DNA of 64,000 nucleotides from Impatiens glandulifera (taxonomy: Eukaryota; Streptophyta; Magnoliopsida; Ericales; Balsaminaceae). The stretch is from assembly GCF_907164915.1 (NCBI RefSeq), contig NC_061862.1, positions 32,696,628 through 32,760,627 of the forward strand, given 5' to 3'. The translations under genes were made by a program, and so were the position numbers. Below the pieces are notes generated by a model. The model did no database searches. It saw only the letters and a program-made list of their open reading frames with translations, and was not told where the DNA came from. Within the stretch, counting starts at the first letter, position 1. Each line of letters begins with the position of its first letter. Of this stretch, positions 2,858 through 59,411 are shown piece by piece.

Positions 2858-3119
2858 GGGTTTTAATCATGAAGAAGAAAGCTAATGATTACTTCTACCG
2901 TCAAGAATTTCAAAAAAACAGTTCCCAATACACAACATTTAATGTTAGCATCAAATAAAACGTCTAATACTAAATGTACAAGCAAAAGATGTCAGAAATA
3001 TTAGTCATTTCTTGCATATTGAGAGACACGTGTCTTCAATTCTTTTGAGGAATGACTGATTTATTTTTCGGCGGGAAAGATAACTCAAACAGACATCATT
3101 AAAGGACAGGTGTCCTAAA

Positions 3120-3365: not shown

Positions 3366-3506
3366 CCAAGACAATGATTTCATATAGAGATGAAATTGCT
3401 TAAGGGAAATGTTTGTCTAAGTAGCTGTGTTTCTCAGACTCTGAATCCTTAGGACGAATTAGAACCTCCGTCTTTCATATCTGTTCAGTTTCATTTTGAA
3501 CAATAC

Positions 3507-3520
3507 GTTCCCCCTCAATT
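3507..3520 (-). other. Second PPT-like purine tract just after pol
   Basis: Immediately after the pol stop the minus strand reads TTGAGGGGGAACG. This looks like a Copia polypurine tract, yet the LTR lies 1.8 kb further on, beyond the accessory ORF. It may be a relic or an auxiliary PPT. Confidence 0.4.
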
Positions 3521-3536
3521 TATGCACATAATTACG

Positions 3537-6500
3537 TTAATCAAGATCAACAAAACCTAGCATGTTTCTAAAATGAGAAAACATAGCTTCAGGAAGAGGT
3601 TTCGTGAAAATGTCTGCAGTTTGTTGATCTGTAGGAACATGTTCAAGACGGATTTGTTTCTGATTGACGTGTTCTCGGATGAAATGATGCCTGATTTCAA
3701 TATGCTTTTTCCGAGAATGCAGAACAAGATTATAGGATATTGCGATGGCACTTGTGTTGTCGCAGAAAATTGGAGATTCATCAGCCTCAATCCCATAGTC
3801 TTTAAGCTGTTGCTGAATCCACAGAACTTGAGAGCAGCAACTATTAGCTGCAAGATACTCTGCTTCAGCTGTAGAGGTTGCCACAGAAGTCTGCATCTTG
3901 CTGAACCATGTGATTAGACGATTTCCAAGGAACTGGCAAGTTCCACTTGTGCTTTTTCTATCAATTTTGCATCCTGCATAATCTGCATCTAAGAAGCTAA
4001 TTAAATTGAAACTGAAATCCTTCGGATACCACAGTTCCACATTTTGAGTTCCCTTCAAATATTTAAGAATACGTTTAGCAGCAGTGAAATGAGAGAGTTT
4101 AGGATCAGCCTGAAATCTGCCACAGACACCAACAGCAAATTGAATGTCTGGCCTGCTGGTAGTTACATATAGTAAGGAACCGATGAGTCCTCTATATGCT
4201 ATAACATCTACACTTTGGCCACCTTCATCTTTTTCCAATTTGACTGAGGAGCTCATAGGAGTAGCTTCTGTAGAACAATTCTTCAAACCAAATTTATTTA
4301 GCAATTCTTTAGTATATTTGGCTTGGTTGATGAGGGTTCCGTTTTCCAGCTGACGGATCTGAAGCCCAAGGAAGAATGTAAGTTCTCCCATCATGCTCAT
4401 TTCAAACATATCCTACATCAGCTTGGCAAATTTCTCACATAGTTTGGGGTTAGTTGACCCAAAGATAATGTCATCAACATATATCTGAACAAGTAGTATA
4501 TGGGAGTCTTTAGCAAATCTGAACAGGGTTTTATCTACTGTTCCAACAACAAAATCATGATCAAATAAGAAATTGGTTAGAGTGTCATACCAAGCTCTAG
4601 GAGCTTGTTTTAGACCATACAATACTTTGTTAAGTCTACAAAAATGATCAGGTAAAACATGATCTACGAAACCAGGGGGCTTCTCAACATATATTTCCTC
4701 ACTTAATTTTCCATTTAAAAACGCACTTTTTACATCCATTTGAAAGTCTTTGAAATTCTTAAATGATGCATATGCTAGAAAGATTCTAATTGCCTCTAGT
4801 CTTGCAACCGGTGCAAAGGACTCATCAAAATCAATACCTTCCTCTTGTCTATATCCTTGAGCAACTAAACGAGCTTTGTTTCTAATGACTAAACCATCTT
4901 CACTAATATTGTTTCTAAAGACCCATCTTGTTCCTATAACTGACTTATCAGTTAGTCTAGGAGTAAGATACCACACTTTATTTCTATCAAATTGGTTTAA
5001 CTCCTCTTGCATAGCATTGATCCAATCTAGATCAACTATAGCTTCACCAATTTTCTTTGGTTCAATTTGAGAAATAAATGCAGAGTTGGCCATTTCATCC
5101 ATCAACTGACGTCTTGTCCTTCGAGGAGAAAAAGGGTTACCAATTATCAGTTCCGGTGTATGATTTCTGTTCCATCTGAAGTTGGAACCAAGAGGATTGG
5201 TCATCTGAACCGGTGACACCGCGACATCCAAACTTTCAACTTCTTGTTAAATAGGAGTTTGTACGTCTGGTTGAACTTCAACCGGATCAGCCACAGGATC
5301 AGATAGAGCCATGCGTTTGTCCAAAGTTTCTTCTTCTTCACATACAGACTCAAGACTAGCCGCTTTCAGTCTGTCAGCAAGATCAATGGGTTCTTTGGAT
5401 TTGCTCTCAACAGGCTCATCAAAGATTGCATGAAGGGATTCTTCAACAGTCTGAGTTCTTTTGTTGTATACTCTGTAAGCCTTGCTTACTGATGAGTATC
5501 CCAACATAAATCCCTCATCTGCTTTAGCATCAAAAGCAGTTAAATAAACCTTTCCATTGTTATGGATAAAACATTTATATCCAAATATCTTAAAATAAGA
5601 AACTGTGGGAATTCTCCCATAATACAATTCATAGGGATTTTTATCAAAACGTTTGTTAATAATTGACCTGTTTTGAGTATAACAAGCAGTACTAATGGCT
5701 TCCGCCCAGAACCTCTAAGGAACATCTGATTCAACAAGCATAGATCTCGCTGCTTCTTTCAGAGTTCTCACTCTTCTCTCAGCAATGCCGTTTTGCTGTG
5801 GAGTTCTAGCACTAGACAACTCGTACCTAATTCCATTTTCCTCAAGATAAGATGATAGAAATCTGTTAGTGAATTCAGTTCCTTGATCACTTCTAATACA
5901 TGAGATATTTAGAGATTTCTGATTCTGAATGTCTCTAAATATTCTGATCAAATTTTCAGCAGTTTTATCTTTTGATGGCAAAAATGCAACCCACGTAAAA
6001 CGTGAAAAATCATCAATAACAATTAAGGCAAATCTCATTCCTCCTACACTTTTTACAAGAATTGTACCAAAAAGATCCATATGTAAAAGTTCTAGGATAC
6101 GACTGGATTGTGATTTTCCTTTGCTTTTGAACGATGATCTTCCCTGTTTGCCTAATTGGCAAGCAGTGCAAATCTTGTCCTTTGAAAACTGAAGGTTAGG
6201 TAAACCAATAACTAAATTGTTTAAACAAATGTTGTTGATGGTTTTAAAATTCAAGTTGTTCAAACGTTTATGTCATAACCATTTCTGATCATTTTTGGCA
6301 ATCATGCACATATGATCAGCTATTTCTTTTTGCCAATTCATTTTATATGAGTTTCCTACTCTTATTCCAGTTAATAAGATGTTTCCCTCTTGGTCTTTAA
6401 CTAAACATTCATGAGTTTGAAAATCTACTGACAAACCATTATCACATAGTTGACTGATATTGATTAAGTTATAACACAAGTTGTCAACTAACAGCACATC

Positions 6501-6670
6501 ATTAATGGTCAGTTTACTATGGATAATCTTACCCTTACTCATGGTCTTACCCTTCTTGTTGTCACCAAATGTGATCTTAGGTCCAGAGCAGTCTGATATA
6601 TCAGTGAGAAGCCGTTTGTTTCCAGTCATATGCCTAGAACATCCGCTATCAAGATACCATACAGATTCCT
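3537..6670 (-). pseudogene. pol of element 1 (protease, integrase, RT, RNase H), interrupted
   Basis: The order is protease (DSGCSRHMTG near 6640), GAG-pre-integrase and integrase core (HMDLFG, IDDFSRFTWVAF, IRSDQGTEF, TPQQNGIAERR) at 6263-5715, then RT ([21 protein letters not shown]) and RNase H ([26 protein letters not shown]) to 3537. All segments from 6629 to 3537 are in one frame and are separated only by single stops at about 6273 (TGA), 5715 (TAG), 5247 (TAA) and 4413 (TAG). The TGA replaces the conserved Trp of the LWHKRL motif. The C-terminal 290 codons are open. It is a recently decayed polyprotein, not a functional gene. Confidence 0.9.
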
Positions 6671-6799
6671 CTAGTCCTTCATTTATTTGTACCTACATAA
6701 ATAAATATTTACAATCTTTTGGTACCCACCTTCAATTGGGTCCTCGATCAATCAGTCCCTTAGGAATCCATATTTGGGTTATTTTGATGGATTTCCCAT

Positions 6800-7908
6800 T
6801 GTGTTGTGATTAGTGCATAGGTTTTTGACTTAGCAGATGACTTCCTGCTAGCCATTGATCCTTTGACTTTTGAAGAAGGTTTTCTTTTAAAATTCCTTGA
6901 CATTGAGTTAGGTTTTAAATTACCAGACTTATTAGCTTTTTCAAGCTTATTCTTAAGTCAGCTAACAGTTGGTGGAACATAAACTATTTCATTTTTAAAA
7001 GCAACTTCTTCATGAATAGGATCAGATTCAATGTCAGTCATACTTCCTTTGACAAAACTTATTGGCTTAAGTTTGTAATTTGGCTTTGACTTTTTGCAGG
7101 ACAGGTTAGGATCATTGTTATCAAATCCCAATCCGGATCTAGATCCAACAGGTTTCAACATGCTGATCTGATATTTGACAGCATCACCAGACCTTGTCCA
7201 TGCACTGACTATGTAGTTCAGTCTCTTGTTTTCAGAAGAAAGAGTTTGAATCTGTTCCTTGAGCATTTCATTCTCAGATGAGATCTCAGTTGAGTTTTCA
7301 TCAAAAACATTTGATTCGGATTCTTTCTTTGAAAGGGGAACAGTTGATTCATATTTGACTTTCATTTCATAAAAAGAGTCAGCTAACTTTTTGTACTCAA
7401 TAGCCATTTCATTAAGTGCATTAGATAGCTCCTCGTTTGTAAATTCTGGTTCAAAGATATCATTTACCTTAGGTTGGTCATCAGCCAATAGGCATGTTAC
7501 AGCTTCATTCTCTTTTTCGGTGGGAGATTCCTCAGTATCACTGTCAGCCCATCTGGATTTGTTCTAACTACACATGAATGCGTTCTGGTTGTTCTATTAT
7601 TGAGGGCTCACTCCATGGATCTGGCTGAGCTTATCCCATATTTCTTTTGCATTGGAACATGACTTAATCTCACAGAACATCTTTGTGTTGAGAGACTGGA
7701 ACAGGATGTTCTTAGCAACATTATCCAGGTTGTTTGTCACCTTATCTTCAGTGGTCCACTCACTTCTTGGCTTTGAGATCTTTATGGGACCATCGGTGAT
7801 GACACTCCACATATCATAGTCAATAGCAGCCAAGTGAGCTTGCATTCTTACCATCCACACATCATAGTTGTCCTTTGACAGAAGAGGGATTTCATTGATG
7901 CAAGACAT
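6800..7908 (-). pseudogene. gag of element 1, internally deleted
   Basis: The N-terminal part begins MSCINEIPLLSKDNYDVW at 7908 and matches Copia gag (UBN2/DUF4219 type) through NAKEIWDKL. It then stops at 7597. The same frame resumes at NKSRWADSDTEE and the coiled segment ending at 6958. Compared with the gag of the 13.7-kb element, more than 200 residues are missing at this point, including the capsid core and CCHC zinc knuckle. The lost region was removed by a deletion, since flanking segments abut within about 110 bases and stay in frame. Confidence 0.8.
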
Positions 7909-7943
7909 ACTTTGGGAACTTGATGCTTGAGAATAGAAACAAG

Positions 7944-7955
7944 GCTCTGATACCA
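7944..7955 (-). other. Primer binding site of element 1 (initiator-Met tRNA)
   Basis: On the minus strand TGGTATCAGAGC, complementary to the 3' end of plant initiator tRNA-Met, begins two bases after the LTR end (ATCA). This fixes the orientation of the element and the inner LTR border. Confidence 0.93.
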
Positions 7956-7957
7956 AT

Positions 7958-9961
7958 TGATAGGATCGGCTTTATCGTTAGAGACGGGGGTCTAGCTAAG
8001 GATGAAGGCTTATGAAAACGGTTTGAAAGAAATCTTGTTAGAGATTTAATTCACTTTCTATTCTACGCAAACTTGTGTAAACACTTGAAACAGATTCAAG
8101 GCGGAATTGTTTACTTGGGTTTGAAACACAAGACGAAATATGAAAAGATGACAGAAAATGAAGAACATAGCAATTTGTTTATGTATGTTCGGAGAAACTC
8201 TCCTACGTCACCCCTTCTTCCAACCACCGGAAGGATTCACTATATGATGAGAATCAAATACAGTTTACACACACTTAGCTCACTATTGAACAAAACACTT
8301 TTTGTTCAATTACAAGAAGATGAAGAATATCACTCAGCTAATGGTGTTTTGATTCTAGCTCTCTCTCTCTCTCTCTCGATTCACACACAGTACAATCAGA
8401 AAGAAGCTTCAAGAATGAGTTCAGTAAGCAAGATGATTGAGTAGTCTCTCTCTACAAAATCAGAATGCTTGTTCGTTCGGAAATTAGCTAGGTTGCTCGT
8501 GCTTCGTCCGTTGCTCTAAGGATTGGATAAATACTGATCAGGAGATAACGGTCGAATCTTCAAGAATGATACGTGGCGCTCTTCCATTGGAAAGCCTCCA
8601 TTGTACACAGCAGGTCATGAGCACAAGGATCGTGGCCGTACCGAACTGGTAGTGCGCCGAATATTCCATCAGAGATGTACCTGCAAAACGGGTAATGTGA
8701 GGAAAATTCTCTTACGTGGCATTCCTTGATTGGATGCATATAGCTGTTGTACTAATCTTCACATGAAGGTGGAGCAGAAGTAGGGAACAACTATAGCACG
8801 TGGGTAGGAGAAATGCTAGATTAAAGCGTACTGCTTGAATAAGAGCATTAGACGTATTTCAGTTAGACAGATTTGGAGAAATCAGTCTAATGAAATAAGT
8901 CAACTCCTTCTAATGAAAAACGTCTATTAGACCACCTGGTCTAATATAATTAGACTCGCGTCTAATATCAAAAACAATTAGACGGGTACGTCTAACTCCA
9001 CTAAGTTAGACTACCACGTCTAATTCCGGTTCTACCTCAGACTTATCTGAAGGAGTTAGACCCACGTCTAACTTTCACTAATTAGACACCCGTCTAATTA
9101 TAATAACCATTAGACGGGTACGTCTAACTCCACTAAGTTAGACTACCACGTCTAATTCCGGTTCTACCTCAGACTTATCTGAAGGAATTAGACCCACGTC
9201 TAACTTTCACTAATTAGACAACCCGTCTAATTATAATAACCATTAGACGGGTACGTCTAACTCCACTGAGTTAGACTACCACGTCTAATTCCGGTTCTAC
9301 CTCAGAATTATCTTAAGGAGTTAGACCCACGTCTAACTTTCACTAATTAGACAACCCGTCTAATTATAATAACCATTAGACGGGTACGTCTAACTCCACT
9401 AAGTTAGACTACCATGTCTAATTCCGTTTCTACCTCAAACTTATCTGAAGAAGTTAGACCCACGTCTAACTTTCAATTAATTAGACAACCCGTCTCATTC
9501 CGCGTATTCATTAGACCATCCGTCTAATTCTTTACGTCTGTTAGACTTACACGTCTAACTACGATGAGTTAGACTGTACGTCTAATTCTATTAGACTTAC
9601 GTCTAATTCCGTGTATTCATTAGACTACCCGTCTAATTCTTTACACGTCTATTAGACTTACACGTATAACTCCGATGAGTTAGACTGTACGTCTAATTCT
9701 ATTAGACTTACGTCTAATTCCTTTAGACTATTAGAATGTCCGTCTAACTCCGTTGAGTTAGACTGTGCGTCTAATTCCATTAGACTAGCGTATAATTTTA
9801 TGCGAATGGAGATCAAAATCGGTCTAATGGCCCTCATTAGATCCAAGTCTAAAGACATGTTTGTCTTAATACACCTATATCAAAACTTATAAATTATTTC
9901 ATCATCAAAATATCAGGGGATAAATTATATCAACACTTAGTCAAAATAATTTGACCCAACA
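7958..9961 (-). repeat. 5' LTR of element 1 with TTAGAC palindrome array
   Basis: This 2,004-bp LTR runs from TGATAGG to CCCAACA on the plus strand. It contains four copies of a unit of about 132 bases (near 8978, 9109, 9241, 9374). The wider array 8845-9840 has dozens of TTAGAC and GTCTAA half-sites in inverted pairs. A possible TATA element (GTATTTATCC on the minus strand) lies near 8527-8537, which would place the array upstream in U3. A CT-dinucleotide run sits near 8360-8380. Confidence 0.93.
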
Positions 9962-12675: not shown

Positions 12676-13998
12676 TGTTAGGATCTAGGTAGTCGCTGGA
12701 GGACCGGGGGTTGGACCGGTTAGCGGTTCTCACTCGAAGGGTGGTGGTTAATCCGGTTAGAGATTAACACCGGGGGTTTCAATACTACACAACCTGTCAC
12801 AAACCCTTGAACTAGGTTCAAGCGCGGAAGAGGTTTGGTTTCAGGTTGAAGCAGCACACTTGTTTGATGGACAAGGCCGGTTTCGGATGATGGAGGTTTG
12901 AAAATGGTGGGTCGGTTTCTGTAATCTGGAAATTCGGTATGGTTAGTATAGAGTCGGTTTAGAGCGGTGTAGTTGAGTTAATCGGTCAGACAATGGAGCC
13001 GGCAGAAAGTAAATAACAAGACAGATTTTATGGATGTTCGGAGATAAAACTCCTACGTCACCCCTTCCTCTCGAAACCGCGAGAAGGATATTCACTAAGG
13101 AATACAAGTACAATACGATCGAGACTTATTTCCTGCTCGATGACACTTTTACAATTTACACCGAAATTGTAAAACACACTTTAACTTTAGCACTTAGGCT
13201 TTCTAGAACAGCACAGTCTTATCACTTGTAGAATAAATGCTCTTAGGATTTCTAACTTGTCTCACTGTATGTTGCTTGTCCCGCATTTACTCTTCTTCAA
13301 CTCCCCCTTTTATAGGTGAAATATGCCAACGGTCATATTTCACTACCTTGAATCTGATTGGCTGAGCATAGGTGCAGTGATTCAGTGTTTCAGAGATTCA
13401 GACCTGCGGTCGTTTCCTCAGACCTGATGGTCAACCTCAGACCTGACATTCTGTCTCAGACCTAGCGGTCTGTTCTTCCGGTATGTAAGACAAACCTGCC
13501 AGGTTTGTCTTTTACTTGATGTAGGCACTGTCTGTTGGACAGTTGTCTGTACTTGGAAGATCTTCTTTCTGACTTATCCCGAAGTGGAAAGATCCGGTAG
13601 TACTGTCTTCTGCAGCCTACAGTCTTTCCTCAGACTTGCATGGATATGGAAGTGTTCAGTCTGTTCCTTTGGTATCGTTCTCAACAGATACCCGAATTGT
13701 CTTCTTGTTCTGGTCGACCATTTGTCTTAACCGAATGGCTTTTGGTATGAGTGATGTAACCGGACTTCTTCCGGTTATTCCTCTGCCTTGTGGCTGATCG
13801 GCTGTTTGATGTTTCCGGTTTTGCTTTGGCCGATCCTTTCTTTGTGCGGTCATGTTCCGAGTATTCTTGGTCGGTTTAGTAGCTTGACCGTCTAGTTTTC
13901 TTATCCGGTTCTTTTGTTTATCCGGTCCGGTTCCTTATTCCTGCATGAAACGTTTATTTAAGTTAGGTTTATTTGAACCGGTCTAATTTTATCTAACA
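12676..13998 (-). repeat. 3' LTR of element 2
   Basis: The plus strand runs from TGTTAGGATC to ATCTAACA. It is nearly identical to 25056-26377. A TATA box on the minus strand (CTATAAAAGG) lies at 13306-13316. The palindromic array at 13398-13512 lies 80-200 bases upstream of it in U3. Confidence 0.95.
13398..13512. promoter_or_regulatory. Palindromic motif array in U3 of the element 2 LTR
   Basis: Four TCAGACCT repeats begin near 13398, 13418, 13436 and 13455, most forming GACC-N3/4-GGTC inverted pairs. They are followed by an 11-bp-arm palindrome, AGACAAACCTG and its complement around one central C. In the other LTR (25776-25890) the same array is present with the last palindrome reduced to 9-bp arms. 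Clustered palindromes upstream of the LTR TATA box are known in sireviruses; the sequences here are family-specific. Confidence 0.6.
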
Positions 13999-14205
13999 AT
14001 TTCTCCCTTTTTGATTATTTTATTTAAAATTATCAAAATCATGTAAGTTTGCAACCGTAGGCCGGTTGTTTTGTTTGTCCGGATTTTTGAAACTGACTTA
14101 TGAGAATTTTTCGAAAAATTTTGAGAAAATTTTTGGAAGAGTCTTTATCTTTTATCTTATCAATTTCTCCCTTTTTGATTATTTTATTTAAAATTATCAA
14201 AACTA
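13999..14205 (-). other. Duplicated polypurine tract region of element 2
   Basis: The same roughly 40-base block, with the minus-strand tract AAAAAGGGAGAAATTG, occurs next to the LTR at 13999-14040 and again at 14162-14203. Multiple PPT copies are a feature I associate with sireviruses. The bases between the two blocks are simple sequence without a gene. Confidence 0.7.
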
Positions 14206-14320
14206 AGTAGAGATGCAAGAAATGACCGGTTTCAAAAATAGCTTTATACATAGTATAGATAACCGAAAATAACATAATATGAAAAAAAACACTAAGACAA
14301 GTAAAGGAAAGAGAGAGCCC

Positions 14321-16075
14321 CTATTCCGAGTCCGAGAAGTCATATATGCTCTTCTTTTTCTTCTTCGGTTGCTGTCGACTGGTCGGTTCGGAAGGTCGTC
14401 GTCTTGTAGACCGGGACTGCAGTTGTTCTTCAACTTCCTCTTCGACTTGATCATCCTGCTGCGATGTACTCGTGATGACCGTTTCAGTGACCTCATTGAG
14501 GAGGTCGGCTATTTGAACTTTCTTAGGGGCTTCCCTCTTTCGCTTTTTCGGCGCTGAAGCGGAGGCGACCGCCTTTTTCTTCTTGTTTTCGGTTGCGAAG
14601 CCTTCCAGCCTTCATGTTTCCCTTTCCAACCGCTCAGCATCCTCCGCAGCTTGAGCGACTGCTTTCTTAGCAAGTCTTGGGAATATGGCCTCTGCCCTTT
14701 TAATCCGCGCGGCTTCCTCTTCCTCCTCGGTAAGTTGAGAAGAACGCGGTGCCTCTTTCTCCTTACTTGCTTCGGCATCCAGCGCATCCTGGACCCTCTT
14801 AGCCACTTGAGCATCAGCCGCTACAGCCGCAGCGTCCGCGTTCATCTTTACCCTTAGCAGTTCGGCAACTTGTTCGGAAAGCGCCTTAAGTTCGGCCTCG
14901 AGACCCACATTTTTCTTCTCGAGTTCGGAGACCCGTTCGAGTGTTGTGCCGACCAGGTCATCAGCCATCGTTGTCAGTCGTTGATCGGTCTCTCTCTCAA
15001 ACCGGTCGAAGTCTTTCTTTAACTCGGAGGTCGAATCCTCCAAAATTGCGGTTCGCTTAACATATTTACCGCGAAGAGCCACCTCTTCCTGTAGATCTTC
15101 GTCGACTTCTGAGATTCGGTCCCGATTGGAATTCAAGAGATACCATGTGGTGTCGGCGAACTTGAGTGCCGAGCCAGTGATTCTTTGGACTCTATCCTTG
15201 AATGGCTGAACCGCGGAGTCTTCAAACTCTTGAATTCGGTTGTCAATCCGTTCTGCGGTTGAGTCTTCAAGCCTTTGGAGACGGCCCTCAACCCATTCCT
15301 TTGTGAAGTCTGATGCGGAGACTTCCGGTTGTGGAGGAGGTGATTGCCCGGTGAGATTATGATCGGCTCTTTCATCGGATTCCTTTGATGCCGCATTCTC
15401 CTTTGGAGGTGTTGGGTAGTGATCCGGAGTCATTTCGATCCGGGGAGCAGTATAGACCGGTATTTTCATTCGGCTGCATATTGCCTCTAGCCGTTCGATT
15501 TCTTGAATGAGTTCCCCTTTGGCTTTTTCAAGCCTTTCTAACACCCGCGGTGCTAAGGTGTCTTCCGGTCCCATCGCTTTGAGCTCCTCCGTAATTTTCC
15601 GGATACGTGTTGTTAGCTTTCGTAGTTGGACCTTTGGTTTCAAGAGGCAGGTTCGGTGTAATACCTCTTGAAGTGTGTTGGAGTTTGTAAGATTCATGAT
15701 CAAGTCTTCCACTTCCTCCAGTCTGTGGATGCACTCCAAGTCTGTGTGGCCCGGTAGGATTTCCCTATACGGTGTGCCGTACCGGTGCTCGTGCCATTCC
15801 AGATATAATTCTTCAATTGACTCGGCTCGCTTTTTCACGCCCTCAAGGAGTTTCAGAGATATCCTATCGGCCTCTGCTTCTTCGGCCTTCTCCTTATCTT
15901 TGTCGCCGCCTTCATCATCGGCTTCTTTATCATCCTCTTCTCCACCCTCGGTGGTCTCAGGATTGGCGTTATCGGGGCTCTGGGCCGAATGCTCGTCTTC
16001 ATTGACCGATCTTTCGTCCTCGGTCTTCTCTGTATCGGTTCTTTCAGAGCGGGAAGCCGACTCTTCATCCTCCGT
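14321..16075 (-). pseudogene. C-terminal acidic, coiled-coil and NLS-like part of accessory ORF C
   Basis: This continues the frame of the ORF at 16891 after a single TAG. An open segment of 408 codons starts at 15838, and the 79 codons upstream of it are also open back to the TAG. The first part is rich in Glu, Asp and Ser. Residues from about 15780 to 14620 are heptad-like and strongly helical (EELYLEW, LERLEKAKGELIQEIERLE, VSELEKKNVGLEAELKAL), suggesting a long coiled coil. A TGA at 14614-14612 interrupts the frame. The tail then runs to a stop at 14323-14321 and contains APKKRKREAPKK, a classic basic NLS-like cluster, and a KKKKKS cluster before the end. Taken as one frame, 16891 to 14321 is 857 codons with two internal stops. 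No enzymatic motif is seen. Confidence 0.6.
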
Positions 16076-16891
16076 CTACTGCGGCGGTTCTGAGAAAGTT
16101 ACTTTTTCTTTTCCTTTACTTTCAGCCTTTGCTTTGGCTGGGGCCGCTTTCTTGTCGGCTTTCTTCTTTTGGCCACATGTGGAACCGGGGGCCGGCTGCT
16201 TCCTTTCTAGGAATTGCTTCGATCTGATGAGGCATCGATCTGCGACAACGACGCCGGGACCGATGTCGAGATTGTGGTGAAGGAAGATCTTACCGAGAGG
16301 AACGACGTATCCCCACGACCGGTTTGAATCCGGTTTCACCATATCCATTAAGTTGCTGAACACCGCTTTTGCCCAGTTGACCTTTCTTCCCTCTATCAGG
16401 CCGATCAGCATCCTGATTTTATCCCTTGTTAGGTTGCTGTAGTTTCCTCCCCTCGCCAGAATCGCCCTTGCGAAGATGTCACAGATTGGGATATACTCCG
16501 GCTTCAACATTGATTTGCTGCCGGATACTTTGATCGGCTCTTTAGTTGCCGATAGAATCTGGCAAGCCGCCTCAAAAGTTTTGTGCTCTATGTCTGTCGT
16601 TGCATCCTGGTCGGTTGTCGGAAGGCGCAGGCTCTCTGCCACCGATGTCTTGGTGAGCTCTATTTCAGAACCGCATACAGTCGCGGTGATTTTGTCGTTG
16701 GAGATGGTTGCGGTTTTGAAGAATTCTTCGACCGCATCTTTGTATATGACATGAGGACCGCCAAGGAAATATTCCAAACCGGTTTTGACTACCCGGTCAA
16801 TAACCTCCTTTGCCTCGGACGTACCTTTCAGCCGGATTTCCTCGAAATCCACCTGAGATAGGTGTCTAAACAAGGCCGAATCACGCCCCAT
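16076..16891 (-). CDS. Accessory ORF C, plant transposon protein family domain
   Basis: The ORF has 271 codons starting at ATG 16891. It aligns with ORFs A and B and with the element 1 ORF. It has LSQVDFEE near the N-terminus, a GLEYFL segment, an FF.TA.I block, ELTKTSVAESLRLPTT, KSMLKPEYIPICDIFARAIL and GRKVNWAKAVFSNLMDMV. It ends in a basic Lys-rich stretch (KKADKKAAPAKAKAESKGKEK) before TAG at 16078-16076. The same frame stays open beyond the TAG, so the TAG is probably a recent Gln-to-stop change in a longer gene. Biochemical function is unknown. It is separately promoted to judge from a TATA box 105 bases upstream. Confidence 0.75.
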   Translation of the reverse strand: MGRDSALFRHLSQVDFEEIRLKGTSEAKEVIDRVVKTGLEYFLGGPHVIYKDAVEEFFKTATISNDKITATVCGSEIELTKTSVAESLRLPTTDQDATTDIEHKTFEAACQILSATKEPIKVSGSKSMLKPEYIPICDIFARAILARGGNYSNLTRDKIRMLIGLIEGRKVNWAKAVFSNLMDMVKPDSNRSWGYVVPLGKIFLHHNLDIGPGVVVADRCLIRSKQFLERKQPAPGSTCGQKKKADKKAAPAKAKAESKGKEKVTFSEPPQ

Positions 16892-16994
16892 CTTAGAGTT
16901 TGAGAGAGTTTGAGAGATAACCGCTTCAGAGAGTTAGATAGCTTAGAGAGAGAAAGCAGATTCGCGTGAGAATGAAATAAAATGACCGAGAGTC

Positions 16995-17004
16995 CCTTTT
17001 ATAG
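16995..17004 (-). promoter_or_regulatory. TATA box upstream of ORF C
   Basis: CTATAAAAGG on the minus strand lies about 105 bases before the ATG at 16891. A CT-rich leader (TTTCTCTCTCTAAG) lies between them, like the Y-patch of plant core promoters. The rest of 16892-17440 has no other gene. Confidence 0.6.
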
Positions 17005-17440
17005 ATGCGGTTTGGAAGCCCAACCGTCCCATCAATATTGGGCGGGAATTTTCCCTCCAAATTGAAAGAAGCGGCAAACCGTGGGCGGGAGATAATGGGC
17101 GCCAAACCATGGGCGGTAAACCGAGGGGGCGACAGTTTTGGGCGGGAAATTTCCCTCCAAAGCCTTTGCTTATGCCATTGATGACGCGCTCTTCTTTTTG
17201 AAACCGATTGATGGTGCGGTTTCAAAGTTTAACCGGTTATTTTGAATGATCAGAGTGTTTGCAATCTTTTAATTTTAAGCGATTTTATGTGACCGAATAA
17301 AGACTCGGTTATAGTTTGAAGATGTTAACCGGTTATTTAGATAAATGTTCAAAGTATTGAATTCAAGAAATATTGCAGAAAGAAAACCGACAGAAAATTC
17401 GGTATTGAGATAGGCATACGTAAATAATGGAAAGTACAGC

Positions 17441-18145
17441 CTATGGAAAAGACATTCTAGAAATTCGGTCTATTGCTGAATCCTTGTCGAGGATGTTCGA
17501 GGAGGAGGCCCGTGTCCCTGGTCTAAACTCTGGCCGGTACCCAAGAATCAGCTTGCTGATATGCGGTGCATAACCGAGACCTCTCTTGGTCAGCACCAAA
17601 TTCTTGAGGTTTTCGAATATGACCGTTGACCAGTTGATGGTCGATTCGCAAAGGATGTGGGTCATAATGTTGTAGGTATTTCTAGAATACCGTTGATTCG
17701 GCGATTGACACAGGATCGAACGGGTCACGATTTCGAGAAGTAGTTGACCGTGACTAGCAAGCTGGGTTTTTGGCCCATAGTGTTCCACCGGAGAAGGGGT
17801 GGCCGATAGGTATTGGGCGAGTTCAAATCCCGCTAGGTCCTCTATGGTTGGAAAGTCAGAGAATCCTTCAGTGGGTAGACCGAATAGTGAAGCAAATTCA
17901 GCTTCATCGATCCAGAATGTGTGGTCTCTGACGGTAGAGACGACATACTTTCCCCTGATGCAGGCGCTTCGAAAGAAGGCCTTGACATCCTCTAGGAGAA
18001 TTGGACCGGCCTCTTCAAGAAAAGGTTGAAGACCGGTTGCAGTGAGAGAGTGAAACATGAGCTCCTGTTCAGGATTTCCGTCCCTCTCTCCCATGCAAGA
18101 GTCGAAGTCAATGCTTAAGAAGTTTCCCAAAGTTCGGCTCGGCAT
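17441..18145 (-). CDS. Accessory ORF B, plant transposon protein family
   Basis: The chosen start is the ATG at 18145 (MPSRTLGNFLSIDFDSC), giving 234 residues. The longer frame back to 18175 needs a TTG start. Family features are the SIDFDS motif, ATGLQPFLEE, FFRSA.IRGKYVVSTV, a FASLFGLPTEGFSDFP segment, LLLEIVTRSIL and STINWSTVIFENLKNLV. The reading frame is intact. It is a stand-alone domain without the coiled-coil tail of ORF C. No known catalytic motif, signal peptide or membrane segment is visible. Role unknown. Confidence 0.75.
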   Translation of the reverse strand: MPSRTLGNFLSIDFDSCMGERDGNPEQELMFHSLTATGLQPFLEEAGPILLEDVKAFFRSACIRGKYVVSTVRDHTFWIDEAEFASLFGLPTEGFSDFPTIEDLAGFELAQYLSATPSPVEHYGPKTQLASHGQLLLEIVTRSILCQSPNQRYSRNTYNIMTHILCESTINWSTVIFENLKNLVLTKRGLGYAPHISKLILGYRPEFRPGTRASSSNILDKDSAIDRISRMSFP

Positions 18146-18233
18146 GATTACGATATTGAGAGAGATGGAATTCAAAGTATTTTAGAAGTGTTTTTATGCT
18201 TTCGTATGTGGTAAGTTGATTAGAAGATGGCTC

Positions 18234-18244
18234 CTTATATAGGG
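18234..18244 (-). promoter_or_regulatory. TATA box upstream of ORF B
   Basis: CCCTATATAAGG on the minus strand lies about 90 bases before the ATG at 18145. The gap 18246-18664 between ORFs A and B shows no other gene. Confidence 0.6.
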
Positions 18245-18664
18245 TCGGTTTTGGAGGGAAAACTTAAGCTTTGATTGTTAGTTTTGTTTTATTTTAAGCA
18301 AAAGAATCTTTATGTTTCCAAGGTGCATGGGGAAGAGGCAGATTGCGGAGCCCGAGGTAGGTGTTAGTTGAGAAGTAACCAGGTTAGTTGAATATTAAAT
18401 GTTCAAGTGGTTGGCGGTTAACTCATTAATAGGGATTCCTTTTTCATTGAATGCACTAATCATAACCGAGATTAATTAGTTGAGACCGAAAGTAACATAG
18501 GACAGTGCCGAACAGGCATGGATAATAATGAAGAAAACATGAGATCAAAAGAAACATAAATGAAACCGAAGAGGACGTAGATCTGGCCGAAACGATCAAT
18601 CATAGGTTGGATAAAGATACACCCGGTGCATGAAGCAAAACGACCGGGTGCAAGAAGGAGTGAC

Positions 18665-19417
18665 TCAGTGTGCATAAGAGTTGACGACACCATTGCGGCA
18701 GTTTCTCCTCTTCCAAGCTCTCTCGAACCGCTCATAAAAGGAGTCGGTTATTTCTTTAGTCAACACCTGGGCTTGGTTCAAACCTTCTCCGGGATAGGTT
18801 GGAACACCAAGCTCCACAAGAAGACAGCTTAGTTGGGGGATGAAACCTACTGATCGGATGCCAACCATCCAGATAAGGATGTCAAACAGCACCCTGGACC
18901 AGTTCACCGGTGTGCCGGTGATTATAGCCGCCATCATGTTGAAGTTCGAGGTACAGTAGGTATTTGTGACATCCTTTCCGAAGATGCTCTTACCGATCAC
19001 ATCATTGAGGAGCTGATATTCAGCTCTCAGGCGTGATTTTGTACCATGATCTTCAACCGGTTCGTCAGATCGTGCGAAGGCGATGGAGATCTCGGCTTTT
19101 ATGTCGGCTGGAACTTCTAGATCCGTAATCCCGTGCTTTGGCAGGATAAAGCACCGCGCAAAGTCCCTTTCGGTGAAATCAAAGACAATACCTCCCACTT
19201 TATATTGAATGTGAGTTTCAAAGTGGGGGGTGCCTCTAAACACCCTGGCGTGATAGAAGAAATCCAAAATGGATTCAGGATAGATGGTGTGTTTGTCGTC
19301 TAGGAAGTTCTGAAGACCGGTTTCCTCCAGAGATTTGATTATCTTGTACACTTCATAGTGCTCTGTGTTTGAACAGGATTGAAAATCAACCTGAAGGATG
19401 TTGGGGAACTGAGACAT
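18665..19417 (-). CDS. Accessory ORF A, plant transposon protein family
   Basis: The ATG at 19417 (MSQFPNILQVDFQSCS) is preferred to the upstream GTG at 19480, because its N-terminus matches the paralogues and leaves a normal leader after the TATA-like box. The product is 250 residues and uninterrupted. Domain landmarks are VDFQS, ETGLQNFL, DFFYHARVFRG, FTERDFARCFILPKHGITDL, SRLRAEYQLLNDVIGKSIF and GTPVNWSRVLFDILIWMVG. It is closest in wording to the element 1 accessory ORF. Function unknown. Confidence 0.75.
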   Translation of the reverse strand: MSQFPNILQVDFQSCSNTEHYEVYKIIKSLEETGLQNFLDDKHTIYPESILDFFYHARVFRGTPHFETHIQYKVGGIVFDFTERDFARCFILPKHGITDLEVPADIKAEISIAFARSDEPVEDHGTKSRLRAEYQLLNDVIGKSIFGKDVTNTYCTSNFNMMAAIITGTPVNWSRVLFDILIWMVGIRSVGFIPQLSCLLVELGVPTYPGEGLNQAQVLTKEITDSFYERFERAWKRRNCRNGVVNSYAH

Positions 19418-19479
19418 TTTTGTCTTAGTGAGAGGATAGTCTTTTGTCTTGTGAGTGTTTTTGGTGAATGTTTGCTTCA

Positions 19480-19488
19480 CTTAAATAC
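19480..19488 (-). promoter_or_regulatory. TATA-like box upstream of ORF A
   Basis: GTATTTAAGT on the minus strand lies about 63 bases before the ATG at 19417. The region 19489-19931 between this box and the end of pol holds no other reading frame of note and is a candidate promoter. Confidence 0.45.
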
Positions 19489-19931
19489 TGGTTGGGGGGC
19501 TATCCTATTGTCCGGTATGAAATGAGATGATATCTATTAACTACAGGATAAGAGGTATTGCATGAAATAGGTATGTTTGCAGTCTAGGATGTTGGTCATA
19601 GGCCTGGACTGTGAAAGATATCAAAAGATCTTCACGTCTTTTTAGGCGCGACCATTTTACTTTGAAAAGGCAATGTTTCAGGACAGACATCTATAAACAC
19701 TGATAATTATTCCACTTCTGTTTGAATTTCAAATAATCTAAGATGACCTGCTTCCAAACCGGTCAGTCATCAGTTGTTCATCCCGATACGGTTATTTGAT
19801 GCATACACCAAGTAGCCGGTCGGTTTACTCTGTCTGATGAGCTGGGCGGTTCTTCCATAGGTAACTCGAAAATTTGAAGTCCAACAGTTTAGGAGGAACT
19901 ACCGGTTTTGTCTGTCCGAACCGGTTTCCCT

Positions 19932-22900
19932 TTAAGCATCCTTAGGAAGGATCTGGCTAATGTCGGTTAAGCCGAGAGTAAGTCTGAATTGAGAGAACTT
20001 AGCTTCCTGTAGAGGCTTAGTGAAGATATCGACTACTTGTTGATCGGTCGATACGTATTCCAGCCGGATATGCTTCAACGTGACATGTTCCCGGATGAAG
20101 TGGTGCCGTATGTCGATATATTTGGTTCTGGAGTGGAGAACCAGGTTGTAGGTGATTGCAATTGCACTTGTATTGTCACAGAAAATCGGGGACTCTTCGG
20201 CTATGACACCGAAGTCCTTCAGCTGTTGTTGGATCTAGAGGAGTTGAGAGCAGCAACTTCCGGCCGCCAAGTATTCAGCCTCCGCTGTTGATGTGGCCAC
20301 CGATGTCTCCTTTTTGCTATGCCATGACACTAGTCGGTCACCTAGGAACTGACATGTTCCACTGGTACTCTTTCTGTCAATCTTACATCCTGCATAGTCT
20401 GCATCTGAGTAACTTGTTAGATTAAAGGACGAGTCCTTTGGGTACCACAGACCGACGTCAGGTGTGCCTTTTAGATACTTCAGTATCCTCTTTGCGGCTG
20501 TGTAGTGGGATTGTTTTGGATTTGCTTGGAATCTCCCACAAACACCAACTGCAAACAAGATGTCCGGTCTACTTGCTGTTAAGTATAGAAGGGAACCGAT
20601 CATGCCCCGGTATGCAATCTGGTCTACCGATTGACCCTCATCATCTCTCTCCAGTTTAATTGATGAGCTCATTGGAGTAGCCGCCGATGAGCAAGTGTCC
20701 ATCCCGAACTTCTTTAGTAGCTCCTTGGTGTATTTAGGTTGGCTAATGAATGTTCCTTCTTTGAGTTGTTTAACCTGAAGACCTAGGAAGAAACTTAATT
20801 CTCCCATCATACTCATTTCAAACTTGTCAGTCATCATTTTTGAAAACTTTTCACATAACTTAGGATCGGTTGAGCCAAAAATGATATCATCTACATAAAT
20901 TTGAACAAGTAGGATATGTTCCTTCTTTTCAAATTTAAACAATGTTTTATCCACCGAACCGATGGTGAAATCATGTTGTACTAGAAATGCAGTTAGTGTA
21001 TCATACCAGGCTCTAGGTGCTTGCTTTAGACCGTATAAAGCTTTATTTAGCCGGTATACATGGTTTGGAAATGCAGCGTTTTTGAAACCGGGTGGTTGTT
21101 CAACATACACTTCCTCACGTAGGTCACCGTTTAGAAATGCACTTTTGACATCCATTTGAAAAACTTTAAAGTTTTTGAAAGCAGCAAAAGCCAGAAAAAT
21201 TTTAATAGCTTCAATCCTAACTATAGGGGCAAATGATTCTTCAAAATCAATGCCTTCTTCCTGTTTGTAACCTTGAGCCACTAATCTGGCTTTGTTCCTC
21301 GTGACCAAACCGTCCTCATTGAGTTTGTTTCTAAATACCCATCTTGTTCCTATGACCGATTGATCCTTCGGTCTAGGGACTAGGTACCAGACTTTACTAC
21401 TTTCGAACTGGTTTAGCTCTTCTTGTATTCCCAAGATCCAATCCGGATCTGACAATGCTTCATCTATTCTTTTCGGTTCAATCTGGGATATGAAAGCGGA
21501 ATTAAAATATCCTTCCAGAAGTTGACCCCTAGTTCGAACAGGTTCTGAAGGGTCACCTATAATTTGCTCAGGAGGATGTTTACTGTTTCTTCTGAGATTC
21601 AGTTCAGGAGTGTCTACCAAATTACCGTTTGTTTGATCAAGGCTAGACATGTCGGTAGGCTGAACATGATTGTCAGACCGACCGACTTCCTCGGATTGGA
21701 CCGAAGTGTCAGCTTCCTGTTGTGGAACAGCTTGATCCGGCTGGGTTTCAATGTTACCCATTTGGTCATGGACAAACCGCCTGAAGACCAGAGTGTCATC
21801 TTCACTATCAGAATGAATATTGTTGTTTTTCAATCTGTTGTGTAGATCAAAGCATGAAGCAGTATTGCTTTCAACCGATTCATCGAAAACAACGTGAATT
21901 GTTTCCTCCATGGTTGCAGTTCTATTATTATATACTCTATATGCTTTACATACTGATGAGTATCCTAGCATGATGCCGGTATCGGTTTTTGCATCAAAAA
22001 CAGTGAGTTGGGTTTTACCATTTATGTGTATATAACACTTACAACCAAAAATCCTGAGGTACTTGAGTTTGGGAACCCTGTTAAAATAAACCTCATACGG
22101 TGTTTTGTTGTGAAACTTGTTTATTAAAGACCGGTTTTGTGTATAACATGTAGTGTTGATAGCTTCAGCCCAAAATTTCTGAGCAATGCCGGAATCGGCT
22201 ATCATGGACCGTGCGGCTTCCTTGAGAGTCCGGTTTCTTCTCTCGGCCAGGCCATTTTGTTGAGGAGTCCTAGCACTAGACAACTCGTGTCTAATGCCGG
22301 ATTCATCAAGATATGCGGTTAATGTACTATTGGTTATTCGGTACCTCGATCACTTCGAATGCTATTAATGCGAGTTGATTTTTCATTTTGCAGGCGCTTA
22401 AGAAGTGTAATCAGGTTTGATACGGTTTCACGTTTAGATGGTAGAAATATTACCCATGTAAATCTAGAGTAATCATCAATAACTACCATGGTGTAAAGCA
22501 TACCTCCTAGGCTAATGACCTGAATCGGTCCAAATAAATCCATGTGAAGAAGATCTAAACATCGGCTAGATTGGATGTTTCCTTTACTCTTAAAGGTTGA
22601 CCTAGTTTGTTTACCCATTTGACATGCTGAGCAAACTTTATCTTGATTAAATACTATGTCAGGAATACCTTCAACTAGCTTTTTGCCACGAATGTAGTTT
22701 AAAGTTTTCATGTTTAGATGGTTTAGTCTCTTGTGCCACAGCCAGGTTTGATCAGTCTTAGCTATCATGCATATAGGATATTCTACTCTAGTTTTCCAGT
22801 CTACCTTGTAAATGTTACCTATCCTATTTCCGGTTAGTAGTACGATACCTTGAGAGTTCTTAACTAAGCATGCATGTTTAAGAAATTCTACCGTGTATCC

Positions 22901-23206
22901 AGCATCACACATCTGACTGATGCTAAGCGGGTTAAAACGTAGGTTTTCTACTAGAAGTACATTATCAATGGTTAGGTTACCATGGACAATCTTACCCTTG
23001 CCCACAGTTTTACCTTTTGAGTTGTCACCGAAAGTGATTAAAGCACCGGTTACTGCTCTGATGTCGGTTAGCATATTGCTGTTTCCGGTCATGTGCCTGG
23101 AGTAGCCGCTGTCCAAGAACCATTCAGAACTTCCTAGCCGTTTCTTTGGATCCTGCAAAATGTACATATTTATAACTATTTGGTACCCACATTTACTTGG
23201 GTCCAC
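19932..23206 (-). pseudogene. pol of element 2 (protease, integrase, RT, RNase H), one frameshift and one amber stop
   Basis: Protease reads DSGYSRHMTG, with Tyr where relatives have Cys. The GAG-pre-integrase HHCC motif (HKRLNH with CSAC) follows. The integrase core shows [25 protein letters not shown] and [11 protein letters not shown]. The frame breaks near 22333 by a one-base loss just after RGTE. From 22283 the frame is open for 682 codons through RT ([21 protein letters not shown]) and most of RNase H ([26 protein letters not shown]). TAG at 20237-20235 replaces a conserved Trp. The remaining RNase H (CDNTSAIAI, HIDIRHHFIREHV-like) continues in frame to a stop at 19934-19932. Gag and protease lie in different frames near 23200. 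Confidence 0.93.
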
Positions 23207-25016
23207 ATGCGATTAGTCCCTTAGGTATCCAAACCTTGATAAACCGGACGGTTTTCTTTGCTAGGGTTTTAACTGTCCTTTTGACACTCGGTCTCGTGTA
23301 TCTCGGTTTTTCTACAAAGGTCTTAAATGGTGATGGTCTTCGGTTCGGTGATCTATGGTTTGACCTACGTGGTTCAGGAAAGGCTTTCATATGTTTGAGG
23401 ATTTCAGCGTTTCTTTTCACAGGGTCAAGCCATTTCTCGGATTCGGTTGGACCAACATAGTCGTATTTTAGCTTTTCTTCCCTATAGTATGCGGTCTCCT
23501 CTTCTTCAGCGGTCCAGGAGCTTTTAAGAAATTTTATAAAGGGAAGGTTTCCTCTTGTAAGCCTTGCTTTCTCTATGGGTTTTCGGTCTTTGGGGCTATT
23601 CTCTGTGTATTCTAGGCCAAACTTGCAACGAGGATGTTTGTAGTGTCTGTTCATGTTCTTTACTATATCACTAGATCTCTTATATGCGGCCATCTTATAT
23701 TGAAGTCGGGCATTTTCTTCCTCGGTTAATTCTCTAGTCGGTTCACTGGATTGTTCAGTCTTAGGATCTAACTCGGTTTCTAAAATATGGGTATCATCAG
23801 GTTGTACGACCTTTGGTTCGGTTATGATGAGTACCTCTGATTCTGTCGGAATGGATATTATGGGATCGGTTCTAATGTTGAGGTGCTTAGGTAACATGGC
23901 TAGTAGGTTCCTATATTCTTCTACCATGTCATTCAATGCATTGTATAATTCATCTTTAGTAAATTCTTCACAAGGAGAGTCAAATACCTGTTCTTCATTT
24001 GCCATGAGACACGTGAGTTCATCATCACTGTCACTATGAGCCCATAGACTTCCTCCATCGTCGGCTATCAGTGCTTTCGGTATCTCACTTCCTTCACCGG
24101 TTTGTTGATAATTGTTTCTGTCATTTTGATAGTCCGGTTTCTGGGTATCCCTCCTCGGCTTCCTGCATTCCCACTTAAAATGTCCCAAACAGTTACAGTT
24201 ATAACATCTTATATTGGATTTGTCACCATAGTAGTTGTTCGTCGGTTGGCTTCTTTTCATGAACCTCCCAAACTTATGTGCAAGCATTGCCATGGCATCC
24301 TCAGTGAACTGTTCGGCGGTTCTGATCGGTACGGGTGCAGGAACCGGTGCCGGTGCAACTGGTTCTGTAGATGTGATTAGTGCTCTGGTTGATGTTGAGG
24401 CCGAGACTTCTTCTTCAGTCCTAGATCTCATTTCGAACTCATATGCCTTAAGATCTTCGAATACATCGTGTAGTTTCATCTTACGTAGGCTCTTTGATTC
24501 CCTCATTACCATTGTTTTTATGTCCCAAGTACTTGGAAGAGATCTCAAAGCTTTCATAATGACCTCTTTGTTGTCATACTTCTTGCCCAGAGTTCCTAAT
24601 TCATCCAACACACCAGTGTACCGGTCACTGTATTCCTTCATAGTTTCTCCTGGTTTCATTTTGATGCTTTCAAACTTCTGTGTGGCCACCATTATCTTGT
24701 TCTCCCTTGTTCTTTCATTTCCCTCAAAGATCTAGATAACCGTGTTCCATGTCTCCTTCGCGGTTTTGCAGTCTCTGATCTTGCAGTATGTGTTTCTGTC
24801 CACACTGTTGGAGATCCGGTTTCTAGCATGATTATCCAGGTTGTTTCTTCTCCTATCTTCAGCCGTCCATTCCTTTCTATCCTTATCAATGAATATCGGT
24901 CCTTCGGTCAGAATGGACTCCATTTCATCATCCAACGTGACTAAGTGCATGTGCATGCGTGCCTTCCAGTTGGCAAAGTCATCTCCTTCTAGCATTGGAG
25001 GCCTATCCTGATACAT
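23193..25016 (-). pseudogene. gag of element 2, one amber stop
   Basis: The frame starts MYQDRPPMLEGDDFANWKARM at 25016, stops at TAG 24734-24732 where a Gln is expected, and continues in the same frame to 23193. It contains the UBN2-like capsid region (ATQKFESIKMKPGETMKEY, ALRSLPSTWDIKTMVM), a Pro/Ala hinge, and one CCHC zinc knuckle (CYNCNCLGHFKWEC) near 24200. The C-terminal third is acidic then basic. Apart from the single stop it is about 607 codons, normal for this lineage. Confidence 0.9.
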
Positions 25017-25041: not shown

Positions 25042-25053
25042 GCTCTGATACCA
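25042..25053 (-). other. Primer binding site of element 2 (initiator-Met tRNA)
   Basis: TGGTATCAGAGC on the minus strand begins two bases after the end of the 5' LTR. Confidence 0.93.
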
Positions 25054-25055: not shown

Positions 25056-26377
25056 TGTTAGGATCTAGGTAGCCGCTGGAGGACCGGGGGTTGGACCGGT
25101 TAGCGGTTCTCACTCGAAGGGTGGTGGTTAATCAGGTTAGAGATTAACACCGGGGGTTTCAATACTACACAACCTGTCACAAACCCTTTAACTAGGTTCA
25201 AGCGCGGAATATGTTTGCTTTCAGGTTGAAGCAGCACACTTGTTTGATGGACAAGGCCGGTTTCGGATGATGAAGGTTTGAAAATGGTGGGTCGGTTTCG
25301 GTAATCTGGAAATTCGGTATGGTTAGTATAGAGTCGGTTTAGAGCGGTGTAGTTGAGTTAATCGGTTAGACAATGGAGCCGGCAGAAAGTAAATAACAAG
25401 ACAGATTTTATGGATGTTCGGAGATAAAACTCCTACGTCACCCTTCCTCTCGAAACCGCGAGAAGGATATTCACTAAGGAATACAAGTACAATCCGATCG
25501 AGACTTATTTTATGCTCGATGACACTTTTACAATTTACACCGAAATTGTAAAACACACTTTAACTTTAGCACTTAGGCTTTCTAGAACAGCACAGTCTTA
25601 TCACTTGTAGAATAAATGCTCTTAGGATTTCTAACTTGTCTCACTGTATGTTGCTTGTCCCGCATTTACTCTTCTTCAACTCCCCCTTTTATAGGTGAAA
25701 TATGCCAACGGTCATATTTCACTACCTTGAATCTGATTGGCTGAGCATAGGTGCAGTGATTCAGTGTTTCAGAGATTCAGACCTGCGGTCGTTTCCTCAG
25801 ACCTGATGGTCAACCTCAGACCTGGCATTCTGTCTCAGACCTGGCGGTCTGTTCTTCCGGTATGTAAGACAAACCTGTCGGGTTTGTCTTTTACTTGATG
25901 TAGGCACTGTCTGTTGGACAGTTGTCTGTACTTGGAAGATCTTCTTTCTGACTTATCCCGAAGTGGAAAGATCCGGTAGTACTGTCTTCTGCAGCCTACA
26001 GTCTTTCCTCAGACTTGCATGGATATGGAAGTGTTCAGTCTGTTCCTTTGGTATCGTTCTCAACAGATACCCGAATTGTCTTCTTGTTCTGGTCGGCCAT
26101 TTGTCTTAACCGAATGGCTTTTGGTATGAGTGATGTAACCGGACTTCTTCCGGTTATTTCTCTGCCTTGTGGCTGATCGGCTGTTTGATGTTTCCGGTTT
26201 TGCTTTGGCCGATCCTTTCTTTGTGCGGTCATGTTCCGAGTATTCTTGGTCGGTTTAGTAGCTTGACCGGCTAGTTTTCTTATCCGGTTCTTTTGTTTAT
26301 CCGGTCCGGTTCCTTGTTCCTGCATGGAAAGTTTATGTAAGTTAGGTTTATTTGAACCGGTCTGATTTCATCTAACA
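25056..26377 (-). repeat. 5' LTR of element 2
   Basis: It runs from TGTTAGGATC to CATCTAACA on the plus strand, 1,322 bp. The right border is fixed by the ATATG target duplication at 26378-26382. A TATA box (CTATAAAAGG on the minus strand) lies at about 25686-25695 and would drive the genomic transcript. The GACC-GGTC array is at 25776-25890. Confidence 0.95.
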
Positions 26378-49931: not shown

Positions 49932-49932
49932 A

Positions 49933-59406: not shown

Positions 59407-59411
59407 AATTT

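What the first reader, a model, noticed from the sequence alone, without database searches (positions are those of the whole stretch)
13999..19931. Three paralogous accessory genes in tandem between pol and the 3' LTR of one Copia element
ORFs A (18665-19417), B (17441-18145) and C (16076-16891 plus tail) share the same succession of motifs: (V/I)DF(Q/D/E), GL..FL, a Phe-rich block, a Leu-Pro segment, a KS or AI block with an EY start, and a VNW/INW block followed by F..L..(M/L)V. Sireviruses often have one extra env-like ORF, but I know of no description of a tandem triplet of this family in one element. The block is about 6 kb, nearly as long as gag plus pol. Retention of open frames in A and B while gag and pol already have stops hints that they may be under selection or were younger additions.
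Basis: partly seen in the sequence, partly recalled or inferred. Interest (0 to 1): 0.82.

Follow-up and report, generated by a model that had tools for sequence, protein, structure and literature searches.

The report
Three-gene accessory module in a retrotransposon
A jumping element in an Impatiens genome carries three related extra genes in a row, each apparently with its own start signal, and comparison of many copies shows that natural selection has acted on all three, which makes it possible to ask what such extra genes do for the element.

Summary
Confirmed and extended. The window matches an Impatiens glandulifera assembly. A 13.7-kb SIRE-like Copia element (26377-12676, minus strand, LTRs 98% identical) carries three paralogous ORFs between pol and the 3' LTR: A (250 aa), B (234 aa) and C, which runs to 14321 (857 codons, two in-frame stops). 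They match each other at E 7e-27 to 5e-18. A and C, not B, resemble Pfam Transposase_32 below its cutoff.

It is no chance insertion: 31 of 38 A-bearing copies span all three genes, in order. Variants shared by three or more copies are more synonymous than singletons in all three genes, so all were selected. Each ORF has a conserved TATA-like box 70-112 bp upstream (exact in 37/38, 34/35, 33/33 copies), suggesting separate internal promoters; upstream of C there are also E2F-like sites. B is exchanged between elements: its versions differ by dS 1.2-1.6 where A differs by 0.15-0.20.

The parts
25056..26377 (-). 5' LTR (TATA box at 25693)
   Evidence: 98.0% identical to 3' LTR; coordinates
25042..25053 (-). 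primer binding site TGGTATCAGAGC, 2 bp after the 5' LTR
   Evidence: printed sequence; tRNA-Met complementarity recalled
19934..25016 (-). gag-pol, broken by two in-frame stops (about 24733, 20236) and two frame changes (about 23200, 22340)
   Evidence: Pfam Retrotran_gag_2, gag_pre-integrs, rve, RVT_2
19480..19487 (-). TATTTAAG, TATA-like box of gene A, 70 bp before its ATG; exact in 37 of 38 copies
18665..19417 (-). gene A, 250 aa, open
18234..18241 (-). TATATAAG, TATA box of gene B, 96 bp before its ATG; exact in 34 of 35 copies
17441..18145 (-). gene B, 234 aa, open; exists in deeply diverged versions in other copies
17071..17149 (-). three E2F-like TTTSSCGC sites (17149, 17106, 17078) upstream of C
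   Evidence: at least one in 31 of 33 copies
16996..17003 (-). TATAAAAG, TATA box of gene C, 112 bp before its ATG; exact in 33 of 33 copies
14321..16891 (-). gene C: 857-codon frame (domain 1-240, then a long tail with acidic, heptad-like and basic stretches), two in-frame stops at codons 272 and 760
13994..14231 (-). two copies of a polypurine-tract-like block before the 3' LTR
   Evidence: the repeat finder D7; sequence
12676..13998 (-). 3' LTR (TATA box at 13314)
   Evidence: CATAT on both outer flanks

Best explanation
A SIRE-like Copia retrotransposon family carries a module of three ancient paralogous accessory genes. Shown: the genes are homologous, multi-copy, in conserved order, under purifying selection, and each has a conserved TATA-like box shortly upstream of its ATG; gene B exists as deeply diverged versions in otherwise similar elements. 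Inferred: each gene is transcribed from its own internal promoter (C perhaps in dividing cells, through E2F sites), giving mRNAs separate from the LTR-driven gag-pol RNA; A and B are single-domain proteins, C the same domain with a long acidic, heptad-like, basic tail; versions are swapped between elements by recombination, probably during reverse transcription of co-packaged RNAs. Most likely job (inferred, about 1 in 3): nuclear DNA-binding factors that counter silencing of the element's own copies, working like VANC proteins of VANDAL transposons. Because selection is seen at the level of the single element, they should act preferentially for the copy that encodes them.
For: Homology. Copies and order. 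Selection: (omega of shared / singleton variants: A .10/.36, B .14/.39, C domain .24/.49, C tail .41/.59; RT control, 20 copies plus the window.013/.33), wrong-frame control for A, B and C; omega between B versions .11-.18. Promoters. Exchange of B; of A. Fold. Cis action: reasoning of Dazeniere et al. 2022 (PMC9073684, abstract only).
Against: No RNA data. NCBI gene models P0001 and P0020 join A to C, and P0021 joins B to C, as if spliced. The TATA and E2F motifs were chosen after looking at the sequence; two of the three E2F-like sites are no better conserved than their surroundings (ranks 106, 77 and 25 of 180). C is open in only 2 of 32 copies on the window's frame and its tail is weakly constrained. 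Singletons too have omega below 1 (.33-.59). The VANC21 match rests on one model of mean pLDDT 63.7; Foldseek's best PDB match has E 0.28 and is another protein; A's model (pLDDT 48.9) does not show it; no DUF1985 match was listed for A, B, C or E1.
Confidence: 0.72

Rival explanations
1. The three ORFs are alternative 5' exons of one accessory gene: a primary transcript starting upstream of A is spliced from A or B into C, so that different domain copies are joined to the common C tail.
For: Gene models P0001 (A to C tail) and P0020 (A to C domain) both leave A at the same place, after GEGLN(H/Q)AQ, and P0021 joins the B end to C. GT stands at that place of A in 38 of 38 copies, AG at the C-tail place in 28 of 32.
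Against: The models are automatic annotations; A goes on for 33 codons after that place, with 2 nonsynonymous and 5 synonymous shared changes there, so that stretch looks coding too. Each ORF has its own conserved TATA-like box, and no other ATG lies between box and ORF in 36 of 37, 34 of 34 and 31 of 33 copies.
Confidence: 0.15
2. They are envelope-like proteins in the usual Sirevirus sense, helping particles move between cells.
For: Position between pol and the 3' LTR in sense orientation, and heptad-like stretches in C (crude, no control), as recorded for Sirevirus env-like genes (passages of PMC3414828).
Against: No clear transmembrane segment: highest 19-residue Kyte-Doolittle mean 1.77 in A, 0.82 in B, 0.96 in C (crude). 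Basic clusters lie in the last 150 residues of 27 of 31 C relatives, which would fit the nucleus.
Confidence: 0.1
3. Captured, decaying gene fragments without function that were carried along.
For: C carries stops here and is open in only 2 of 32 copies on the window's frame; gag-pol is broken too.
Against: Shared variants are strongly synonymous in all three genes, not in the wrong frames; B versions at dS 0.7 to 1.6 keep omega 0.11-0.18; the TATA-like boxes are conserved.
Confidence: 0.03

Closest known systems
Sirevirus (SIRE) elements with an extra 3' sense ORF (eORF-3'F, env-like)
   Same: Copia element, extra sense ORF(s) between pol and 3' LTR, repeated PPT-like blocks, TATA in the LTR. 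Neumann et al. [quoted passage not shown]
   Different: Three paralogous genes rather than one, each with its own TATA-like box. Bousios et al. 2010 supported an internal env promoter but could not conclusively identify one (section 20 and passages, PMC2829016).
Pfam PF20167 Transposase_32; the 3' ORF of sunflower Athila 14
   Same: PF20167 is the only family listed for A, C and E1; Kazancev et al. 2024 report partial PF20167 similarity in an Athila (Gypsy) ORF (passages, PMC11728184).
   Different: Scores are below Pfam's cutoff (20-28 bits against 45), B has no match, and the host element is Copia, not Gypsy.
VANC anti-silencing proteins of VANDAL transposons (VANC21)
   Different: No DUF1985 sequence match listed, 10% identity in the structural alignment, a retrotransposon and not a DNA transposon, three genes and not one; no binding or demethylation data.
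Antisense or 5' accessory ORFs of Retand, Grande and Tekay
   Same: Extra genes beside gag-pol; Grande's extra gene is reported to have its own promoter (parts 1-2 of 3 of PMC7264820); [quoted passage not shown]
   Different: Those are Gypsy elements with other proteins; those of Grande and Retand are antisense and that of Tekay is at the 5' side.

Membership tests
SIRE lineage / Sirevirus | Copia pol domains in the order integrase, RT | tested here: met
   gag_pre-integrs and rve, then RVT_2 downstream
SIRE lineage / Sirevirus | RT/RH phylogenetic placement within SIRE | not tested
   no reference set was at hand; the placement rests on structural marks and on sequence style as I recall it
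SIRE lineage / Sirevirus | PPT octamer AGGGGGAG in several copies next to the 3' LTR, AT/TG attachment site (PMC2829016 passages) | tested here: inconclusive
   two PPT-like blocks and AT/TG are present, but the octamer here reads AGGGAGAA
SIRE lineage / Sirevirus | conserved TATA box near the middle of the LTR (PMC2829016 passages) | tested here: met
   TATAAAAG at 25693 and 13314, about the middle of each LTR
PF20167 Transposase_32 | score at or above Pfam's gathering cutoff | tested here: not met
   A 20.1, C 27.8, E1 26.9 bits against 45; B none
VANC family | DUF1985 domain by sequence | tested here: not met
   hmmscan of A, B, C and E1 listed no DUF1985 (the filters drop most weak matches); of the 22-member scan only 25 of 38 families were shown
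VANC family | fold of VANC21 | tested here: inconclusive
VANC family | sequence-specific DNA binding and loss of DNA methylation | not testable with these tools
   needs wet work
Env-like proteins | transmembrane segment | tested here: inconclusive
   crude hydropathy only, maximum 1.77

The most novel reading that the evidence does not exclude
A Copia retrotransposon family carries a three-gene set of VANC-like, DNA-binding anti-silencing factors, each with its own promoter (C under E2F, cell-cycle control), that recognise repeated motifs in the element's own non-coding DNA and are reshuffled between elements as interchangeable modules. On this reading part of the heterogeneous 'env-like' genes of Sireviruses are not envelopes but anti-silencing systems, a kind of system so far known to me only from DNA transposons.
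Probability: 0.3. Interest if true: 0.92.

Novelty: new variant of a known kind. Interest (0 to 1): 0.72.

Why it matters
How Sirevirus 'env-like' genes are expressed and what they do is left open in the passages read (PMC2829016, PMC3414828, PMC6317226). This family gives candidate internal promoters for three genes at once, evidence that all three proteins were selected, and a natural experiment in exchange of gene versions, so expression, DNA binding and anti-silencing become directly testable.

Tried and rejected

Dropped before counts: of 41 matches of A, the window itself and two pieces of one split copy on C8 were not fetched, so 38 loci; gene counts leave out copies whose match spans less than 85% of the gene. 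Of the 31 copies that span all three genes, L009 lacks a part inside B and L022 a part inside C. L009, put in the B-prime list by an identity threshold, is not counted as B-prime. RT control: 20 of 38 copies. In one search each list held 39 entries: for B and C the window was left out; for A the window and the smaller piece of the split copy. The C tree holds 32 copies and the window; L030 is not in it.
Full report
THE ELEMENT. The window is G000:C1:32696628-32760627 of a 653.9-Mb assembly. Contig lengths there equal those printed for Impatiens glandulifera protein records, so I take that as the species. On the minus strand a complete Copia element runs from 26377 to 12676 (13,702 bp): LTRs of 1,322 and 1,323 bp with 14 transitions and 11 transversions, K2P 0.019, about 0.7-1.4 million years with recalled rates of 1.3e-8 and 7e-9; CATAT on both outer flanks and a TGGTATCAGAGC primer site. 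gag-pol has two in-frame stops and two frame changes.

THE THREE GENES. A, B and C are pairwise homologous. C is longer than its open part: an 857-codon frame to 14321 with two in-frame stops; the first domain (1-240) is followed by a long tail with acidic, heptad-like and basic stretches (the heptad scan is crude and has no control). PF20167 Transposase_32 is the only family listed for A, C and E1, below its cutoff; B matches nothing. A second element in the window has one related ORF, E1, whose frame is broken near the start.

COPIES. DNA of A gave 41 matches; only 40 of 2,158 candidate places were scored, so this is a lower bound. I read 38 of these loci. Matches span at least 85% of each of A, B and C in 31 of 38, in the order A-B-C; two of the 31 (L009, L022) have a deletion inside B or C. 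The other seven lack or cut B or C. Searching with B and C independently (40 matches each, of 1,736 and 1,660 candidates), 21 of 39 listed B places have a listed C place about 1.3-1.4 kb downstream on the same strand, and 17 of 39 listed A places have a listed B place; both are lower bounds since the lists are cut. On the window's frame A is open in 23 of 38, B in 17 of 34 and C in 2 of 32 copies that span the gene. A protein search with C's domain gave 31 proteins at E <= 10, all named I. glandulifera, and searches with A and with the A/B/C/E1 alignment gave 1 and 4, also of that species; the tool reaches only relatives that share short exact words and a similar length.

SELECTION. Following the logic of Dazeniere, Bousios and Eyre-Walker 2022 (PMC9073684, abstract read), I compared variants seen once with variants seen in three or more copies. 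Omega falls from .36 to .10 in A (P 4e-6).39 to .14 in B (P 5e-4).49 to .24 in the C domain (P 1e-3) and .59 to .41 in the C tail (P 4e-3); doubletons lie between (.28.21.28.46). RT, over 20 copies and the window, falls from .33 to .013. In the two wrong frames of A, B and C shared omega is 0.90-2.03 (not done for RT). So all three proteins mattered to the spread of the element, less strictly than RT and least for the C tail. Singletons are also below 1, so they are no perfect neutral yardstick. That abstract argues that such a decline is expected only if products favour their own insertion; A, B and C therefore probably act in cis preference. Copies were not filtered for intactness, and near duplicates such as L011/L013 exist.

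PROMOTERS. TATAWAAG occurs four times on the sense strand of the whole element: once in each LTR, 96 bp before B and 112 bp before C; TATTTAAG occurs once, 70 bp before A. In 1,000 shuffles of the internal region the strict box stood before one of the three genes 8 times and before two never; the motif was chosen after seeing the sequence. Across copies the exact octamer is kept in 37 of 38, 34 of 35 and 33 of 33, and ranks 4th, 2nd and 1st of 192 octamers in the 200 bp upstream; four further loci fetched for another purpose keep the A box too. Between the box (plus 30 bp) and the ORF there is no other ATG in 36 of 37, 34 of 34 and 31 of 33 copies. TTTSSCGC, the E2F site as I recall it, occurs four times in the 64-kb window on both strands: three upstream of C and one 334 bp upstream of E1; 1 of 2,000 shuffles of the C upstream stretch holds three or more, but 31 of 2,000 reach the count of a looser motif. 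At least one site is upstream of C in 31 of 33 copies, none upstream of A (38) or B (35); 72 of 88 sites in the 38 loci fall in the C-upstream 330 bp, 4.7% of the bases. Against this, two of the three sites are not better conserved than their neighbourhood. Bousios et al. 2010 (PMC2829016, section 20 and passages) supported an internal env promoter but could not conclusively identify one; here there are three candidates. This is sequence evidence only.

EXCHANGE OF VERSIONS. In six copies (L026, L030, L031, L037, L041, L043) B is only 73-76% identical to the window's, while A is 93-95%, the C domain 90-93% and the C tail 87-91%. In 150-bp bins the drop coincides with the B ORF in L026, L037 and L041; in L031 and L043 it reaches further out, and L030 was not plotted. 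These B versions differ by dS 1.2-1.6 from the window's, while in the same element pairs A differs by 0.15-0.20 and, in the four pairs measured, the C domain by 0.23-0.34; omega between B versions is 0.11-0.18, while one close pair of the same version (window, L010, dS 0.025) gives 1.14. In a tree of C, L041 (B') pairs with L023 (B) at 99/99, and L037 joins L031, L042 and L043, which hold other B versions, at 100/100, so B changed partners more than once. The tool's own group table, which leaves out rows without a label, needs only one change for each of the two B' groups. Conversely three of four loci chosen because their B is 97-98% identical carry an A of only 80%, the fourth 89%. Recombination between co-packaged RNAs is the likely route (inference).

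SPLICING RIVAL. Gene models P0001 and P0020 leave A at the same place and enter C, and P0021 runs from B into C. GT is kept at that place in 38 of 38 A copies, AG at the C-tail place in 28 of 32. These are automatic annotations; only RNA can decide.

VERDICT. It is a new variant of the known extra-ORF Sirevirus: a conserved, selected three-gene module with candidate own promoters and exchangeable genes. That it is unpublished rests on ten searches of an open-access library, none of which listed such a triplet.

Noticed in passing
window 15-9747, minus strand: A second SIRE-like element, by its direct repeats 15-1395 and 8369-9747 (95.5% identical, with 133-bp tandem repeats inside), with one related ORF (E1) whose frame is broken near the start; TATTAATA lies 110 bp and an E2F-like site 334 bp upstream.
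   Followed up: partly
window 25841-25783 and 13462-13404: GGTCTGA at four places, 19-20 bp apart, upstream of the TATA box in both LTRs; it resembles the Sirevirus repeated motif CGGTCTGACCG listed for Osr10 in PMC2829016 (passage).
   Followed up: partly
window 17440-16892: The stretch upstream of C has CpG observed/expected 1.21 against 0.67 in gag-pol.
   Followed up: no
I. glandulifera protein records P0001 and P0003-P0036: Pieces of these transposon genes are annotated as proteins with misleading names (myosin heavy chain, titin-like, Ycf2-like, calponin homology).
   Followed up: partly
window 39428-42240, minus strand: ORFs that look like subtilisin-type protease exons by eye; no family search was made.
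   Followed up: no
window 48170-52541 and 59407-64000: Long inverted repeat pair, 88-94% identical, holding LINE-like reverse transcriptase pieces by eye.
   Followed up: no
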